From Polynucleobacter antarcticus (GTDB lineage Bacteria; Pseudomonadota; Gammaproteobacteria; Burkholderiales; Burkholderiaceae): DNA of 64,000 nucleotides. Of the stretch, positions 52,853 through 59,547 are shown one piece after another. Where the stretch lies: NCBI RefSeq assembly GCF_013307245.1, contig NZ_CP028941.1, positions 682,001-746,000 on the forward strand, read 5' to 3'. How positions within the stretch are numbered: the stretch's first letter is position 1; every line of letters starts with the position of its first letter. Below the pieces are notes generated by a model, which saw only the letters and a list, made by a program, of their open reading frames with translations, was not told the DNA's origin and ran no database searches. Both the position numbers and the translations under genes were made by a program.

Positions 52853-52899
52853 AATTGATAATCATTCTTATTTACTGTATATTGAGAATCATTCTCAAT
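52853..52899 (+). promoter_or_regulatory. Fur box(es) before the OMP/FMN-binding/ApbE operon
   Basis: A 9-1-9 inverted repeat ATTGAGAATCATTCTCAAT (52881-52899) is perfect apart from its central base, the form of a Fur site. A second, overlapping-type copy, TTGATAATCATTCTTA, lies at 52855-52870 and keeps the GATAATCATT core. They are 58-100 bases before the start codon of the outer-membrane protein gene. Repression by Fe-loaded Fur of all four downstream genes is the natural reading. Confidence 0.85.
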
Positions 52900-52956
52900 T
52901 GAGAAAAACGATGTTCACATTCTGTTAGCTTCTTTTTCAACCCCTTTCAAGGCACC

Positions 52957-53871
52957 ATGAAATTCAATATCAAAAGACTCATTGCTTTTAGCTTCGTATT
53001 GGCAGCTGCTCTCCACTTCTCTTTTGCCCATGCCGGTGAAGGCGTATTTGGTTGGATCTACACCTTAGACCTACAACCCAAAGGTAAGCTTGAATTTGAA
53101 CAACGGCTGCAACTAAATAAACAACAAGCAGCGGGTTCTTACGATGCCTGGACTGCCAGAACGGAATTGGAATATGGCTTGACCAATGACTTGCAGATTG
53201 CGGGTTACATTAATTCTTATTACACCAATGCCAGTCAGAACTACACGAACCCTGAAGCCTGTGGAGAAAGCGCTAGTTGTACAGGGGGTTATGGCGTGCC
53301 CTCTAGTCATGATCCCGCCACCCCTTTTAGAAAGAGTGGCATCGAGGGCGCTTCATTGGAAGCCATTTACCGCATTACCAATCCGGTAACTTCACCCGTG
53401 GGAGTGGGGCTATACCTCGAACCGACCATTGGCAGAAACAAAAATGAGATTGAAGCCCGCTTATTACTGCAATCGAACTTTATTGATGATCGCCTCATTT
53501 TGGCCGGAAACGTGGTGGTCGCTAATGAGCGCTTGAAGTTTGTTGAGAATGGCAATGTGCCGGAGTCGACGTTGGATTTTCTGGTGGGGGCAAGTTATCG
53601 CTTTGCACCCAAATGGTCTGCGGGTGTAGAGGCACGCTTTCATAATGATTATTCTGAATTGAATTTACGCAATCAAGTGCAACGCGCTACCTTTGTTGGT
53701 CCAAATATGCACTATGCCGCTAAAGACTGGTGGGTCACTGGTGCGTGGCGCTACCAACTCAAAGGGGGCACTTGTATGGGTGGTGGTGAAGCGGAGTGCT
53801 CTAACGCCCGTGTATGGGATAGTCACTCTGTGAATGAGTTCATTGTCAAAGTTGGCTTTCCACTAAATTGA
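52957..53871 (+). CDS. Outer-membrane beta-barrel protein, DUF6662-like
   Basis: A 304-residue protein with a signal peptide (to Ala26, SFAHAGEG), then GEGVFGWIYTLDLQPKGKLEFEQRLQL and a series of alternating strands (GLTNDLQIAGYINSYY, PVGVGLYLEPTIGR, LDFLVGASYRFAPKWSAGVEARFH), a beta-barrel pattern. The start and the EFEQ segment resemble DUF6662. It has no TonB box or plug, so it is not a siderophore receptor. AAGG lies before ATG. It is the first gene behind a Fur box and heads an operon with an FMN-binding protein and ApbE, thus a link to iron is expected. Confidence 0.78.
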   Translation: MKFNIKRLIAFSFVLAAALHFSFAHAGEGVFGWIYTLDLQPKGKLEFEQRLQLNKQQAAGSYDAWTARTELEYGLTNDLQIAGYINSYYTNASQNYTNPEACGESASCTGGYGVPSSHDPATPFRKSGIEGASLEAIYRITNPVTSPVGVGLYLEPTIGRNKNEIEARLLLQSNFIDDRLILAGNVVVANERLKFVENGNVPESTLDFLVGASYRFAPKWSAGVEARFHNDYSELNLRNQVQRATFVGPNMHYAAKDWWVTGAWRYQLKGGTCMGGGEAECSNARVWDSHSVNEFIVKVGFPLN

Positions 53872-53887
53872 AACTACATAGAACAGC

Positions 53888-54475
53888 ATGAACTGGAAAC
53901 CCAACCCCTTGCTCATTACGGGGCTCGCGCTCGTGAGTGCACCCCTTGTGGCTCATGCCAAGATTTATGTCTCTATTGAGCAAGCACAAAAGCTACTACT
54001 ACCTAATGTAGGCTTGGTCAAAAATCCCATTATCGTCACCGATAGCTTGCAGGACAAAATGCGGGCTGCCTCTAGTATTCGCCACCCATTTCAGGGCAAT
54101 CTGATTTGGAGATCGGCAGATGGCAGCTGGTTCATCGTCGATGAGGTTGTGGGTAAACATGAAATGATCACCTACGCCGTAGCCCTCAGCCCTACGGGTA
54201 CCGTCATCGGGGTAGAGATTTTGGAATACGTTGAATCCTATGGCTATGAGGTTGCTGAAGCGCAATGGCGCAAACAATTTATTGGTAAAACAGCAGCAGA
54301 CCCCATCAAGCTCAAGCAAGATATTCAGAATATTGGTGGAGCTACCTTGTCTTGCAAACATTTAACCGATGGTGTGAAACGGGTTACGGTCTTATTTGAC
54401 TTAGCCTTGAAGCAGGACACTCTAACCCATAAAACAGCAGTTGCAGCTACAGCAACAGCAACTACGAAAAAATGA
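53888..54475 (+). CDS. Exported FMN-binding domain protein
   Basis: A 195-residue protein with a signal peptide (VAHA-KIYV, to about residue 24) and an FMN-bind domain at about 90-170. The acceptor motif reads IGGATLSCKHLTDGV: Gly151-Ala-Thr153 with Thr153 as the likely residue to which ApbE links FMN through a phosphoester. The rest (SIEQAQKLLLPN, VGKHEMITYAVALSPTGTVIGVEILEY) matches RnfG/NqrC-like FMN domains. It starts 17 bases after the barrel gene and its stop overlaps ApbE (ATGA). It should carry electrons in the periplasm. The Ala/Thr-rich tail after 175 is low complexity. Confidence 0.88.
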   Translation: MNWKPNPLLITGLALVSAPLVAHAKIYVSIEQAQKLLLPNVGLVKNPIIVTDSLQDKMRAASSIRHPFQGNLIWRSADGSWFIVDEVVGKHEMITYAVALSPTGTVIGVEILEYVESYGYEVAEAQWRKQFIGKTAADPIKLKQDIQNIGGATLSCKHLTDGVKRVTVLFDLALKQDTLTHKTAVAATATATTKK

Positions 54476-55287
54476 TCCGCTGTAAACCGCTCCTCGGTAC
54501 CTTTGTAGAAATTACCGTTGAAGATGAAGCGGTCTGTAGCAATGCTATCGAGCAGGCTTTTGATAGTATGGCGCAGGTGCAGCTACTGATGGGTTTTCAT
54601 AATCCTCATAGTGAGCTATATAGGATCAATCGAGACAGTCATGTAAAGCCTGTTCGCATTCATCCTTGGACGGCGCAAGTTCTCAGTACGGCACAAGCCG
54701 TTCATAGAGAATCAATAGGCATCTTTAATTGTGGTGTTGGGCAGCGCCTCGTAGAGGCTGGCCTCCTTCCAAAGCACTGCCATAAAGAACATGTGTTTGG
54801 TGGCATCGAACATATTCAATTTATGGAGCCCCACTTAGTTCACTCTGATTTGCCACTATGCCTTGACCTTGGTGGCATAGCCAAGGGCTTTGCTGTCGAC
54901 GTGGCTGTGCAGACCCTACAAGCCCAAGGGATTGAACAGGGTTCTGTCAATGCCGGTGGTGATTTTCGTGTCTTTGGAAACCAAGCCCAAGCTATTCATA
55001 TCAGAAACCCAGCGCAGCCCCATGAACTCTTTCACTTGGGTGCATTACAAGAAGGGGCGATTGCTACTAGCAGCTTGTACTTTGCAAGAAGAGCATCTCA
55101 GTCATTGAGTTATATGGTTCATCCCAGTAGTCAGCAATTAATTGATTTTTCACCATCGTATTCTGTGATTGCGAAGGAATGTATTTATGCAGATGCTCTC
55201 ACCAAAGTCATTGCGATCTCTGGAAATACCACCCATCCTTGTCTAGCTAAGTTTTCAGCGCAGGCGATCGCAGTAATGGCACAGTAA
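54472..55287 (+). CDS. apbE: FAD:protein FMN transferase (ApbE)
   Basis: A 271-residue ApbE, which takes FMN from FAD and attaches it to Thr of the acceptor motif. Present: CKPLLGTFVEI, LCLDLGGIAKGFAVD (near 130-142), VNAGGDFRVFG (near 158) and ECIYADALTKVI (near 235), all key parts. It begins at once with the mature domain (MIRCKPLLGTF) and has no signal peptide or lipobox, unlike periplasmic ApbE. The gene is 4-base coupled (ATGA) to its acceptor. So modification may occur in the cytoplasm before export, or export is by other means. Confidence 0.9.
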   Translation: MIRCKPLLGTFVEITVEDEAVCSNAIEQAFDSMAQVQLLMGFHNPHSELYRINRDSHVKPVRIHPWTAQVLSTAQAVHRESIGIFNCGVGQRLVEAGLLPKHCHKEHVFGGIEHIQFMEPHLVHSDLPLCLDLGGIAKGFAVDVAVQTLQAQGIEQGSVNAGGDFRVFGNQAQAIHIRNPAQPHELFHLGALQEGAIATSSLYFARRASQSLSYMVHPSSQQLIDFSPSYSVIAKECIYADALTKVIAISGNTTHPCLAKFSAQAIAVMAQ

Positions 55288-55305
55288 AACTAGAGCTATA
55301 TCCGT

Positions 55306-55749
55306 ATGACTACCCGAAACCGCCTAGGAAAAATGCCGAACTGGCAAAGGCATTTTGTCTTAATAGGAATGCTGAGTTGCTCCATGACCGGAATTGCTTA
55401 TTTATTGGGTCATGAGTTTTATATTCAGCGCAGTTTATTGGGGTCGCATGCGATATTAGCCTGGCACGGGGTCACCGCCATCATCGCTACAGCAGCTTTA
55501 GGCTCTGTCCTGCCAGTCCATTTGAAGGCTGGCCTCAAATCGAAGAAAAAGTTTTGGAGTGGCATGAGTCAACTGACTTTTCTAATGGCCTTATGTTGCT
55601 CTGGCGCTCTACTCTATTACGGCCCCGAACCAATCCGTGAATCTGTGACTACAAGCCACTGGGTGATTGGCCTTATATTCTTTACTATTTTTTTACTGCA
55701 TGGTGTTTTTATCCGCAAAGATAAAAATACTAGCGCATTGAGCTCATAG
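55306..55749 (+). CDS. Four-helix membrane protein with conserved-looking histidines, possible b-type cytochrome
   Basis: A 147-residue protein with about four hydrophobic helices (16-36, 48-68, 88-106, 115-134). Histidines lie in or near the helices: His36, His48, His54, His118 and His132; the last two are 14 residues apart on one helix, the spacing used for two heme ligands in b-type cytochromes, and His48/His54 in helix 2 could pair with them. I do not recognise a family. As the last gene of the Fur-controlled operon with an FMN-binding protein and ApbE, it is a plausible quinol-to-FMN electron carrier. No motif proves this. Confidence 0.6.
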   Translation: MTTRNRLGKMPNWQRHFVLIGMLSCSMTGIAYLLGHEFYIQRSLLGSHAILAWHGVTAIIATAALGSVLPVHLKAGLKSKKKFWSGMSQLTFLMALCCSGALLYYGPEPIRESVTTSHWVIGLIFFTIFLLHGVFIRKDKNTSALSS

Positions 55750-56021: not shown

Positions 56022-56351
56022 TTACCGCTTGCAGTAGTGCTTATAGAGCAAGCTAATGACTGAAACCACTACCTGGCTAGCAAGTGAATAGTAAATTTGC
56101 TTTCCTTCTCTGCGTGTCTTGACTAGCTTTCCCTGACGAAGCACTGTTAACTGCTGAGAGAGGGTAGGTTGATGTATATCTAGTGCTGTTTCTAATTCAC
56201 TGACGCATCTTTCCCCTTGGCCAAGCTCACATAAGAGCATCATGCGATCACGGTTGGATAAGACTTTCATCAGCTTGCAAGCCTCATCCGCAGAAGACTG
56301 CATCTTTTTAAGTTCTGTTTTAGAAATGGTGAGCTTCATATTGGTAGCCAT
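56022..56351 (-). CDS. ArsR-family sulfane-sulfur sensor (SqrR/BigR-like)
   Basis: A 109-residue winged-helix repressor: LMKVLSNRDRMMLLCELGQGERCVSELE and LDIHQPTLSQQLTVLRQGKLVKTRREGKQIYYSL. Cys41 and Cys107 are at just the positions of the reactive pair in SqrR (BigR 42/108), which form a tetrasulfide with persulfides and release DNA; a further Cys25 and Cys49 are extra. Neighbours are an MBL persulfide-dioxygenase-like enzyme, a TSUP permease and DUF2892, the classic BigR regulon. It should repress these, with the AT-rich dyad at 57294-57338 as a likely site. Confidence 0.9.
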   Translation of the reverse strand: MATNMKLTISKTELKKMQSSADEACKLMKVLSNRDRMMLLCELGQGERCVSELETALDIHQPTLSQQLTVLRQGKLVKTRREGKQIYYSLASQVVVSVISLLYKHYCKR

Positions 56352-56372
56352 CTATTGATTTTTATTATGTTT

Positions 56373-57245
56373 TTACACTGCGTTCAATGGAATTTTTAAG
56401 TAAGCAATTCCATTGCTCTCTGGCTCAGGAAAGTGACCCGCCCGAATATTTACCTGAATAGACGGCAGAATTAAGGTGGGCATCTCTAAAGTTTTATCTC
56501 GGGCGGTACGCATCTGGACAAACTGCTCTTCACTTACCCCATCCCGAACATGAATATTTTTCGCTTTTTCTTCACCTACCGTGGTCATGAACTCTGGAGG
56601 TCGATCTGCAGGTGGGTAGTCATGGCACATATAGAGTTTGGTTTGTGCTGGGTAGGAAAATATCTTCTGAATAGATCGATACAGCGCTGCCGCATCTCCA
56701 CCAGGAAAATCACAGCGTGCGGTGCCCACATCAGGCATAAATAGGGTATCGCCTACAAAAATAGCATCCCCAATTTCATAAGCCATACATGCTGGTGTGT
56801 GGCCAGGTACATAGAGCGCTTTTAAGCTGAGATGGCCAAAAGGAAGGGACTCATCCTCCTTAAGTAAGCGATCAAACTGCTTGCCTTGGGTATCAAATTG
56901 CGCATCTAAATTAAAGACGCCTTTAAAGACACTTTGCACCTGGGTAATATGATCACCAATCACCAGCTTACCGCCTAATTGCTCTTGCAAGTAAGGGGCT
57001 GCAGTTAAATGATCCGCATGGGCATGGGTTTCTAGAATCCAACTGACCGTGAGCTGATGATGCTTCACAAATGTAATCACCTCGTCTGCTGAAGTCGTTG
57101 TAGTTCTGCCCGACTTAGGGTCGTAGTTCAATACCGAGTCAATGATGACGCAGGGACTGCCATCACCCTCATAGACAACATAGGTATAGGTCCAGGTTGC
57201 TGGATCAAAAAAGTGTTGAATCACTGCCAAGGCTGGGGTAGTCAC
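56373..57245 (-). CDS. MBL-fold hydrolase, persulfide dioxygenase/Blh-like
   Basis: A 290-residue metallo-beta-lactamase fold protein. ETHAHADHLTAAPYLQ (HxHxDH), YVPGHTPACMAYEIGDAIFVGDTLFMPDVGTARCDFPGG and MCHDYPP provide the iron ligands and the RCDFPGG signature of ETHE1-like persulfide dioxygenases. Blh in the BigR operon is the direct counterpart. It would oxidise glutathione persulfide to sulfite. It lies 21 bases before the regulator gene in one operon; divergent from the TSUP gene. Confidence 0.9.
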   Translation of the reverse strand: MTTPALAVIQHFFDPATWTYTYVVYEGDGSPCVIIDSVLNYDPKSGRTTTTSADEVITFVKHHQLTVSWILETHAHADHLTAAPYLQEQLGGKLVIGDHITQVQSVFKGVFNLDAQFDTQGKQFDRLLKEDESLPFGHLSLKALYVPGHTPACMAYEIGDAIFVGDTLFMPDVGTARCDFPGGDAAALYRSIQKIFSYPAQTKLYMCHDYPPADRPPEFMTTVGEEKAKNIHVRDGVSEEQFVQMRTARDKTLEMPTLILPSIQVNIRAGHFPEPESNGIAYLKIPLNAV

Positions 57246-57293
57246 AATCGTTCCTATGCTTCATGTTGAGGGAGTTACTTATAAGTCATTAAT

Positions 57294-57338
57294 ATTTTAT
57301 ATTGCTATATATATTTATATACTATATTAATATAAAAT
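57294..57338. promoter_or_regulatory. AT-rich dyad between divergent sulfur genes
   Basis: ATTTTATATT (57294-57303) and its exact complement AATATAAAAT (57329-57338) bracket a run of TATA-type sequence in the 101-bp gap between the MBL and TSUP genes. BigR/SqrR sites are AT-rich dyads, so this is the best candidate operator for both. Exact half-site match not known to me. Confidence 0.45.
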
Positions 57339-57346
57339 TACTAGCA

Positions 57347-58186
57347 ATGGAAGCCTTACCCGCACTTGAATACTCCAACCTCATAGGTCCTGCACTAGGT
57401 ATGCTGGTGGGGGTCCTAATGGGTCTCACTGGTGCAGGTGGAGGCATTCTCTCGGTACCACTACTGGTCTTTTTCTTAGATCTTTCAGTAGCCCAAGCTG
57501 CACCCATTGCCCTTTGTGCAGTTGCCCTTGCTTCATGCATCGGAGCCATCATGGGGCTTAAGAGCAAAACCTTGCGCTACAAAGCAGCAGGTTTTATGGC
57601 GATCTTTGGTTTAGCGCTCTCACCATTGGGCTTATGGATTGCGCCACAGATTCCGAATACGCCTTTACAGATTTTGTTTAGCCTGATTTTGCTATTTGTT
57701 GCTGTACGATTATTGATGCAAGCTCGTAATGACATCATGGGTATCGTCGAGCCACTCCGAAAGCCTCCCCCGTGTTTAGTAAACCCCGCCGCCGGAAAGC
57801 TGACATGGACTATGCCTTGTGCGCGCTCACTGCTATTTGCGGGTAGCCTTGCAGGCTTTTTGTCTGGCTTACTGGGCGTTGGTGGTGGATTTATTATCGT
57901 CCCCGCTCTGAAGCGTTATACCGACCTTCCTATTCAGTCGATTGTGGCTACCTCTCTTGGGGTGCTGGCGATCATTACAGGTGGTGGCGCCCTCTTTTCA
58001 GCGCTATCAGGTAACTTGAATATAGCCCTGGCTGCACCCTTCTCTATAGCTGCCTTATTGGGCTTATTACTCGGCCAACTTCTCGGGAAAAAATTAGGTG
58101 GTTCGCGTATTCAGCTGATCTTTGCTATCTTTACCTTCCTGATTGCTGGAAGCTTGCTTATTAAAGGACTGTTGGCTCTCGGCTAA
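57347..58186 (+). CDS. TSUP family permease, probable sulfite/sulfur-anion exporter
   Basis: About 279 residues, eight helices in two halves, with MLVGVLMGLTGAGGGILSVPLL near 20-42 and LAGFLSGLLGVGGGFIIVPAL near 168-188, the two TauE/SafE repeats. In BigR/SqrR regulons such a TSUP protein exports sulfite made by the persulfide dioxygenase. The ATG at 57347 has no good ribosome site, with very AT-rich leader; a TTG at 57302 is in the promoter. Diverges from the MBL and regulator genes and converges on the yoeB-like toxin gene. Confidence 0.9.
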   Translation: MEALPALEYSNLIGPALGMLVGVLMGLTGAGGGILSVPLLVFFLDLSVAQAAPIALCAVALASCIGAIMGLKSKTLRYKAAGFMAIFGLALSPLGLWIAPQIPNTPLQILFSLILLFVAVRLLMQARNDIMGIVEPLRKPPPCLVNPAAGKLTWTMPCARSLLFAGSLAGFLSGLLGVGGGFIIVPALKRYTDLPIQSIVATSLGVLAIITGGGALFSALSGNLNIALAAPFSIAALLGLLLGQLLGKKLGGSRIQLIFAIFTFLIAGSLLIKGLLALG

Positions 58187-58909: not shown

Positions 58910-59233
58910 ATGGTCTATTCAATCCTTTATTACAGCCAAGAAGTTCAAGAAGACATCATGAGTTTGCCTGCAACACTACAAGCCCGTTATATTGGCTTAA
59001 CTAATCGAATGATGGAGTATGGTCCTAATTTAGGCTTGCCGCATACTGATTCTTTTGGCGGTGGTCTATTTGAATTAAGGCTTAAGGGTGCCGAGGGTAT
59101 TGCGAGGGTTTTCTTTTGCACAATGGTTGGACAAGAAATTATCATGCTCCATAGTTTTATCAAGAAGACGCAAAAGACCCCAGATAAAGAATTAAAACTT
59201 GCCAAGCAACGCATGAAGGAGTTGAGGAAATGA
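58910..59233 (+). CDS. HigB-like toxin (Gp49/RelE family)
   Basis: A 107-residue toxin with LYYSQEVQEDIMSLPATLQARYIGLTNRMMEYGPNLGLPHTDSFGGGLFELRLKGAEGIARVFFC, the Gp49-like HigB family pattern (basic ELR core followed by R-VFF). It is an mRNA-cleaving toxin placed first in the operon, as usual for HigBA. It overlaps the antitoxin by ATGA. No visible Shine-Dalgarno; the leader is AT-rich. Confidence 0.9.
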   Translation: MVYSILYYSQEVQEDIMSLPATLQARYIGLTNRMMEYGPNLGLPHTDSFGGGLFELRLKGAEGIARVFFCTMVGQEIIMLHSFIKKTQKTPDKELKLAKQRMKELRK

Positions 59234-59547
59234 CGATAAAAATCAATAAAAGCAGCAAAACTCTGACACACAAACAAATGGTCGGCAAGATGCTTAAGAA
59301 TTCGGCCGTTAAAGCCGAGGTGGATAAACTCAATCGTGAGGAGTTTGCAATTTTGGATGAGATTCTTACCGCCAGAAAAGAAGCGGGGCTATCTCAAGCC
59401 CAAATTGCTAAACGTATGGGAACACAAGCGCCTGCCATTGCTAGATTAGAAAGTGCCTTAGCCACCGGAAAACATTCCCCAAGTCTAAGTACCCTCAGAA
59501 AGTATGCAGCGGCCCTAGGCAAGAGAGTGGAACTGCACTTAGTCTAG
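59230..59547 (+). CDS. HigA-like XRE-family antitoxin
   Basis: A 105-residue protein with a C-terminal XRE helix-turn-helix: EILTARKEAGLSQAQIAKRMGTQAPAIARLESALATGKHSPSLSTLRKYAAALGKRVELHLV. The N-terminal 40 residues form a variable lysine-rich part that probably binds the toxin. Coupled to HigB by ATGA overlap. It should bind the palindrome at 58886-58899. Confidence 0.92.
   Translation: MTIKINKSSKTLTHKQMVGKMLKNSAVKAEVDKLNREEFAILDEILTARKEAGLSQAQIAKRMGTQAPAIARLESALATGKHSPSLSTLRKYAAALGKRVELHLV

What the first reader, a model, noticed from the sequence alone, without database searches (positions are those of the whole stretch)
52853..55749. Fur-controlled outer membrane / flavin / ApbE / heme-like operon: candidate extracytoplasmic iron reductase
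Seen: a 19-bp Fur-like palindrome plus a second partial one before four co-directional genes with tight spacing: an exported beta-barrel (DUF6662-like), an exported FMN-bind protein with a GGAT acceptor motif at Thr153, ApbE coupled by ATGA, and a four-helix protein with His118/His132 spaced 14 apart. Known: ApbE-flavinylated FMN domains carry electrons in the periplasm, and Fur-repressed genes serve iron uptake. Inference: under iron starvation the membrane protein passes quinol electrons through FMN to Fe(III) near the barrel. I know no described system with just this set.
Basis: partly seen in the sequence, partly recalled or inferred. Interest (0 to 1): 0.78.

Follow-up and report, generated by a model that had tools for sequence, protein, structure and literature searches.

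The report
Iron-controlled flavin electron-transfer operon
A lake bacterium carries a four-gene set, apparently switched on when iron is scarce, that probably moves electrons across its inner membrane to a flavin protein in the cell envelope, most likely to make iron usable; the same set recurs in many related bacteria.

Summary
Two Fur-like boxes sit on a TTGATA-N17-TATATT promoter before four co-directional genes: a DUF6662 outer-membrane barrel, an exported FMN_bind protein (acceptor Thr153), ApbE (ATGA overlap) and a 147-residue four-helix membrane protein. One box is the best in the genome, which shows one Fur-family, one FMN_bind and one ApbE match. The order is not chance: 69 of 80 named loci keep it (Polynucleobacter to Acinetobacter), and in 300 genomes of the order 20 of 20 barrel places lie by the FMN gene. 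Best reading: a Fur-repressed chain, quinol to cytochrome b to flavinylated periplasmic protein to a ferric acceptor, with a 12-strand barrel as entry pore. Electron transfer is well supported; ferric reduction is inferred. Against it: no FeoB or Nramp importer was found, and 13 of 24 distant loci lack a good Fur box. Unexplained: by hydropathy none of 99 ApbE rows has an export signal, though its substrate is exported. New variant of a known kind.

The parts
52856..52870 (+). Fur-like box 2, TGATAATCATTCTTA (13 of 15 to the 7-1-7 consensus), overlapping the -35
52881..52899 (.). Fur-like box 1, 19-bp perfect palindrome ATTGAGAATCATTCTCAAT; its 15-base core is the best match in the genome
52855..52883 (+). 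sigma-70-type promoter match TTGATA-N17-TATATT, 10 of 12, under the two boxes
   Evidence: consensus match only
52957..53871 (+). DUF6662 outer-membrane barrel, 304 aa, N-terminal signal (hydropathy; cleavage after AHA by eye), 12 predicted strands, pLDDT 90
53888..54475 (+). exported single-domain FMN_bind protein, 195 aa, Sec-type signal (residues 1-24 by eye); only FMN_bind match found in the genome
54344..54346 (+). codon of Thr153 (GGAT), predicted FMN attachment site
54472..55287 (+). ApbE (FAD:protein FMN transferase), 271 aa, no signal peptide by hydropathy; only ApbE match found in the genome
55306..55749 (+). four-helix predicted diheme cytochrome b, 147 aa
55465..55467 (+). codon of His54 (helix 2, predicted periplasmic-side heme ligand)
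55519..55521 (+). codon of His72 (helix 2, predicted cytoplasmic-side heme ligand)
55657..55659 (+). codon of His118 (helix 4, predicted periplasmic-side heme ligand)
55699..55701 (+). codon of His132 (helix 4, predicted cytoplasmic-side heme ligand)

Best explanation
A Fur-repressed operon, made when iron is scarce, that builds a short electron-transfer chain. The 147-residue protein takes electrons in the inner membrane (probably from quinol) and passes them through two b hemes (H72/H132 towards the cytoplasm, H54/H118 towards the periplasm). The exported FMN_bind protein, carrying FMN on Thr153 put there by the operon's own ApbE, takes them and reduces a ferric compound in the periplasm or at the outer membrane; the 12-strand DUF6662 barrel most likely admits that compound or docks the flavoprotein. 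Shown by computation: boxes and promoter match, gene identities, four invariant His and Gly, acceptor motif, predicted barrel fold, conserved linkage. Inferred: Fur repression, covalent FMN, heme, quinol as donor, Fe(III) as acceptor, the barrel's role.
For: Fur: best box in the genome, a single Fur-family match; a box of 13 or more of 15 within 200 bp upstream of the barrel match in 51 of 51 loci with barrel identity of 75% or more and in 11 of 24 more distant ones, against 0.7% and 0.08% of shuffles and 0% and 0.3% of random windows; two other one-mismatch sites lie before a TonB gene that is followed by a TonB receptor, and before a HiPIP, and a pair of two-mismatch sites before a FutA-type iron-binding protein gene. 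Electron transfer: H54/H72/H118/H132 and G29/G66/G86/G122 in 93-94 of 94 rows; DUF4405 matched in 14 of 19 members and b561 in 9 of 19 at E up to 1 (best 5.7e-4 and 1.3e-5); model pLDDT 86.7, structural rows led by designed diheme 4D2, with FdnI and CybB near the top. FMN: acceptor motif in 107 of 108 rows; the one miss reads LAGATLS and so keeps GAT. Linkage. Iron: relative G060 places the FMN and cytochrome homologues after P19, OprB, a ferritin-like protein, cupredoxin, FTR1, an Fer4_5 protein and Porin_O_P, behind three Fur-like boxes.
Confidence: 0.62

Rival explanations
1. The same Fur-controlled electron chain serves something other than iron reduction, for example repair or reduction of another envelope substrate, or disposal of electrons when iron-rich respiratory enzymes run short.
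For: In other Burkholderiales the FMN-cytochrome pair stands beside Porin_O_P-like barrels, CxxCH-containing peroxidase-like genes or an exported protein with a Tat-like signal (by eye) rather than iron genes. No convincing FeoB and no Nramp found here.
Against: Fur boxes recur with the DUF6662 form, and one relative sits in a P19/FTR1 operon.
Confidence: 0.2
2. Iron sparing: under iron starvation a flavin carrier replaces an iron-containing periplasmic carrier, with no role in iron uptake.
For: Fur repression plus a flavin in place of iron recalls flavodoxin replacing ferredoxin (recalled).
Against: The operon includes a predicted two-heme cytochrome, which costs iron, and a dedicated outer-membrane barrel, which a carrier swap does not need.
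Confidence: 0.1
3. The barrel is an iron-chelate pore and the other three genes are linked to it only loosely.
For: 12-strand barrel whose top fold matches are channels and secretion pores; FMN-cytochrome pairs also occur without DUF6662.
Against: 20 of 20 barrel places in 300 genomes of the order lie within 3 kb of an FMN place, and 18 of 20 within 4 kb of a cytochrome place.
Confidence: 0.05

Closest known systems
Caulobacter crescentus CC3059-CC3063 operon (Fur-repressed; PMC3751524, passages seen)
   Same: Fur sites over the -35/-10; a first gene called 'Transporter', then DUF2271 (a flavinylation-substrate family), ApbE and a flavo/heme protein; derepressed by iron limitation and in a fur mutant, with Fur binding shown by gel shift
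   Different: DUF2271 and DUF4198 instead of FMN_bind; a flavoprotein annotated as sulfite reductase (PMC8238504, passage, cites the Caulobacter clusters as PepSY-like) instead of a 147-aa four-helix protein; no DUF6662 named
DUF4405 / FezC flavinylation- and ferrosome-associated cytochromes (PMC11334425, section 11 and passages seen)
   Same: membrane cytochrome with four conserved His, encoded with ApbE, including in Proteobacteria; heme B spectra shown there for one DUF4405 protein and for FezC
   Different: DUF4405 described as six-helix, ours predicted as four-helix; the partner often found there is a flavinylated Flavodoxin_4; no barrel or Fur box in what I read
P19/FTR1 clusters with FMN-binding genes (PMC8238504, section 15 read)
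   Same: FMN-binding protein in iron assimilation; relative G060 has its FMN and cytochrome homologues in such a cluster
   Different: no P19 or FTR1 among the nine window proteins scanned
DsbD/DUF3570 flavinylation systems (PMC8238504, section 12 read)
   Same: ApbE with its own substrate; a possible iron role was suggested
   Different: electrons are thought to come from DsbD thiols there, not from a cytochrome b
RnfG / NqrC
   Same: nearest solved structures to the FMN protein family by sequence (RnfG 7zc6, E 3.8e-10)
   Different: no Rnf or Nqr subunits in the operon; far below the NCBIfam cut-off (24.5 of 102 bits for rnfG)

Membership tests
ApbE-dependent extracytosolic flavinylation systems | ApbE with its conserved motifs | tested here: met
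   PF02424 131.1 bits, cut-off 25.6; DLGGIAKG-like motif in 95 of 99 rows and ADALT in 91 of 99 (motifs recalled)
ApbE-dependent extracytosolic flavinylation systems | FMN_bind substrate with acceptor Thr | tested here: met
   PF04205 37.9 bits, cut-off 22; T153 invariant in 13 of 13; motif in 107 of 108
ApbE-dependent extracytosolic flavinylation systems | substrate exported | tested here: met
   signal-like hydrophobic stretch in the first 35 residues of the window protein (2.29) and in 95 of 108 rows at a line of 1.6 that I set (hydropathy only, no signal-peptide program)
ApbE-dependent extracytosolic flavinylation systems | ApbE itself exported or lipidated (usual form) | tested here: not met
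   window ApbE 0.96; 0 of 99 rows reach 1.6 (median 0.96, highest 1.59; 0 of 93 distinct); a minority cytosolic form is known (PMC12052999 passages)
ApbE-dependent extracytosolic flavinylation systems | covalent FMN on the substrate | not testable with these tools
   needs mass spectrometry
DUF4405 / b561-type cytochromes | Pfam match over cut-off | tested here: not met
   window protein: no match at E up to 1. Relatives: 14 of 19 match DUF4405 at E up to 1, and the distant L192 protein passes the cut-off (28.5 against 26.7)
DUF4405 / b561-type cytochromes | four conserved His as heme ligands | tested here: met
   H54, H72 in 94 of 94 and H118, H132 in 93 of 94 rows; that they bind heme was not testable
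DUF4405 / b561-type cytochromes | six membrane helices, as described for DUF4405 | tested here: not met
   model has four long helices, 12-37, 48-79, 83-105, 108-146
Fur regulon | Fur box over the promoter and a Fur protein in the genome | tested here: met
Fur regulon | iron- and Fur-dependent expression | not testable with these tools
   needs expression data
DUF6662 | Pfam match over cut-off | tested here: met
   49.2 bits, cut-off 27, but residues 202-272 only; Moraxellaceae homologue L140 matches nearly full length
PepSY / DUF2271 / DUF4198 Fur-repressed ApbE clusters | PepSY, DUF2271 or DUF4198 genes in the cluster | tested here: not met
   none among the nine window proteins scanned; the rest of the genome was not searched for them
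P19/FTR1 iron-assimilation clusters | P19 and FTR1 genes in the cluster | tested here: not met
   none among the nine window proteins scanned; present in relative G060; the rest of this genome was not searched

The most novel reading that the evidence does not exclude
A flavin-based outer-membrane electron gate: the flavinylated protein docks on the DUF6662 barrel and reduces Fe(III) chelates (for example ferric humics) in or through the pore, a flavin counterpart of porin-cytochrome conduits; and, because ApbE appears cytosolic throughout the family, FMN is attached to the precursor before Sec export, an order of events I know of in no flavinylated envelope protein.
Probability: 0.17. Interest if true: 0.85.

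Novelty: new variant of a known kind. Interest (0 to 1): 0.6.

Why it matters
Polynucleobacter is a common freshwater genus (recalled). [quoted passage not shown] an iron-controlled envelope electron chain found in most of the genus genomes searched (cytochrome match in 29 of 37) is a candidate for the missing reduction step, though whether P. asymbioticus itself carries it was not checked. The operon also gives the uncharacterised family DUF6662 a testable setting, extends flavinylation-linked cytochromes to a minimal four-helix form, and raises a sharp question: how does an ApbE without an export signal flavinylate an exported protein?

Tried and rejected
Classical Fur 19-mer with up to 3 mismatches: no hit in the window; the 7-1-7 form fits better. 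Close-relative search of viral contigs with the FMN protein: none. DUF6662 in the literature: 0 papers. A. baumannii iron-limitation paper (PMC3055841, passages): no mention of ApbE, FMN or flavin in the main text. Flavinylation before export: no paper on it among the 10 listed of 29 (listing only). Foldseek for the cytochrome: nothing under E 0.001; VIA rows are suggestive only, and the absence of other families from that list means nothing. Cytochrome profile against PDB sequences: nothing relevant. DUF6662 by the Pfam model in 229 genomes of the class: 3 matches, because that model fits only part of our branch; my own alignment served better. Nramp in the own genome: none. Considered and dropped: glycerol-3-phosphate acyltransferase (weak match, E 0.15; the invariant His pattern does not fit); chance gene order; a TonB-type receptor (12 strands; no plug matched; the genome has three plug matches elsewhere).
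Full report
WHAT IS THERE. The window lies in a single-contig 2.15 Mb genome; its nearest named relatives are mostly Polynucleobacter or unnamed freshwater Burkholderiaceae. Two Fur-like boxes precede four co-directional genes with gaps of 16, -4 and 18 bp. Pfam names the first three: DUF6662 barrel, FMN_bind, ApbE; the fourth had no credible match. The boxes are the only 13-of-15 matches to TGATAATCATTATCA in 64 kb, the downstream one is the only site in the genome without mismatch to TGAKAATCATTMTCA, and they cover the -35 and abut the -10 of TTGATA-N17-TATATT. Such a promoter match is by itself no more than chance (4 found, 5.0 expected), but its position under the boxes fits repression.

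THE REGULATOR. The genome has one FUR-family match, so the boxes can be assigned to it rather than to a Zur or PerR relative. I opened six of the other sites. One-mismatch sites lie upstream of a TonB_C gene that is followed by a TonB-receptor plug gene, and before a HiPIP; a pair of two-mismatch sites lies between a permease gene and a solute-binding protein closest to FutA-type iron-binding proteins (PDB 6g7n, E 2.3e-106). One two-mismatch site lies before a photosynthetic reaction-centre gene, and two lie inside coding sequence with no evident iron link. So part of the list looks like an iron regulon, with our operon as its strongest site, and part may be chance.

CONSERVATION. In 61 genomes (own plus 60 relatives) the 147-aa protein was found in 34: 29 of 37 in the genus and 5 of 24 outside. 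I took 34 regions from 32 of these genomes (all but G000 and G022). Of 28 genus regions, 23 hold barrel, FMN, ApbE and cytochrome in that order unbroken, 2 hold broken versions, 1 lacks a barrel match and 2 hold only a distant cytochrome homologue; none of the 6 regions outside the genus has a barrel match. Of the 80 best named loci for the FMN profile (a list limited to the nearest of 547), 69 hold all four genes in order on one strand; 7 of the 11 others are cut by a contig end, 2 have the barrel divergent (one of these also shows no ApbE), 1 shows no ApbE only and 1 shows only barrel and FMN. The 69 include Variovorax, Aquabacterium, Pseudacidovorax, Duganella, Ralstonia and Acinetobacter. 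They are not independent: most are one genus. In 300 genomes drawn evenly from the order, barrel profile A3 hits 20 genomes, cytochrome profile A1 49 and FMN profile A2 59. All 20 barrel places are within 3 kb of an FMN place, 18 of 20 within 4 kb of a cytochrome place, and 47 of 50 cytochrome places within 3 kb of an FMN place; of 71 FMN places 47 have the cytochrome and 20 the barrel nearby. So FMN-cytochrome is the core and DUF6662 a specific partner.

FUR BOX CONSERVATION. In the 200 bp before the barrel match, a box of at least 13 of 15 (relaxed consensus) occurs in 51 of 51 loci whose barrel is 75% or more identical to the best query, and in 11 of 24 more distant ones; 5 of the 80 could not be scored. 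Dinucleotide shuffles give 0.7% and 0.08%, random windows of the same loci 0% and 0.3%. Distant positives include Acinetobacter piscicola, A. bouvetii and Perlucidibaca. The 13 distant negatives, among them Variovorax, Duganella and Ralstonia, count against universal Fur control.

THE FLAVIN PROTEIN AND ITS ENZYME. The FMN protein has a signal-like N-terminus and the GGAT acceptor; the motif is present in 107 of 108 rows and the one miss reads LAGATLS. Nearest solved relatives are RnfG and NqrC. ApbE carries its sequence motifs in most rows (95 and 91 of 99) and aligns with solved FMN transferases. But no ApbE row of 99 reaches the hydropathy line of 1.6 in its first 35 residues (median 0.96, highest 1.59), which 95 of 108 FMN rows and 85 of 96 barrel rows pass (a plain measure, with a line that I set). 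Taking the most upstream start in 69 of these rows gave no clear signal either. It is the only ApbE match in this genome, and the FMN protein the only FMN_bind match. The cytosolic ApbE of Klebsiella described in PMC12052999 (passages) acts on a soluble fumarate reductase. Either FMN is attached before export or ApbE leaves the cytosol by an unknown route; nothing here decides.

OTHER FORMS. Elsewhere in the order the FMN-ApbE-cytochrome set stands beside a Porin_O_P-like barrel instead (L065 over the Pfam cut-off; L180, L184, L187, L189 by eye; L059 matched no family). In G060 the FMN and cytochrome homologues follow P19, OprB, a ferritin-like protein, cupredoxin, FTR1, an Fer4_5 protein and Porin_O_P, behind three Fur-like boxes; no ApbE was found beside them. 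G333, of the same genus, has a 15-of-15 box directly before Porin_O_P-FMN-cytochrome. L178 and L181 have a 14-of-15 box directly before the FMN gene. Many of the 25 loci show no box. G060 is the strongest link to iron assimilation outside the box evidence.

MECHANISM. I commit to: iron-scarce cells make a cytochrome b wire and a flavinylated envelope protein that reduce a ferric compound admitted by the barrel. Electron transfer across the inner membrane I hold at about 0.85, an iron role at 0.75, ferric reduction at 0.6 (my estimates). The weak point is the fate of Fe(II): no convincing FeoB and no Nramp was found, and the iron ABC system seen is of the FutA type, whose Trichodesmium member is described as serving Fe(III) (PMC6254336, passages). 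Reduction may instead serve to strip iron from a chelate.

AGAINST WHAT IS KNOWN. It works like the Fur-repressed ApbE operons of Caulobacter (PMC3751524, passages) and uses a cytochrome related in pattern to DUF4405/FezC (PMC11334425, section 11), but with a different flavoprotein, a smaller cytochrome and a DUF6662 barrel. I found no paper describing this set (searches; open-licence full texts only, of which I saw listings and the passages cited). In the passages and sections of the two flavinylation surveys that I read it is not named; their supplementary lists were not available. I file it as a new variant of a known kind.

Noticed in passing
54472-55287 and homologues: By hydropathy ApbE shows no export signal in any of 99 rows although its only evident substrate is exported; unexplained.
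   Followed up: partly
L162 (G000:C1:667196): A TGAGAATTTTTCTCA palindrome directly upstream of a photosynthetic reaction-centre gene (Photo_RC, 327 bits): the genome is that of a phototroph, and the box may tie photosynthesis genes to iron or be chance.
   Followed up: no
[quoted passage not shown]
   Followed up: no
window 56022-58186: ArsR-type regulator, metallo-beta-lactamase hydrolase and TauE/SafE transporter: looks like a BigR-type sulfide-detoxification cluster (name recalled).
   Followed up: no
window 58910-59547: Gp49/HigB-like gene overlapping an HTH_3 gene: looks like a toxin-antitoxin pair.
   Followed up: no
G011 and G017 (L057, L054): Cytochrome gene broken into two frames, and in G017 the barrel match is incomplete: the operon seems to be decaying in some Polynucleobacter species; 8 of 37 genus genomes show no cytochrome match.
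   Followed up: partly
L055, L056 (G025, G003): Orphan cytochrome homologue (36-37% identity) without barrel, FMN or ApbE matches, beside an exported-looking kelch-repeat protein.
   Followed up: partly
L173, L177, L060: FMN-ApbE-cytochrome set downstream of a quinone-oxidoreductase-like gene (by eye) with a 14-of-15 Fur-like box about 300 bp before it.
   Followed up: no
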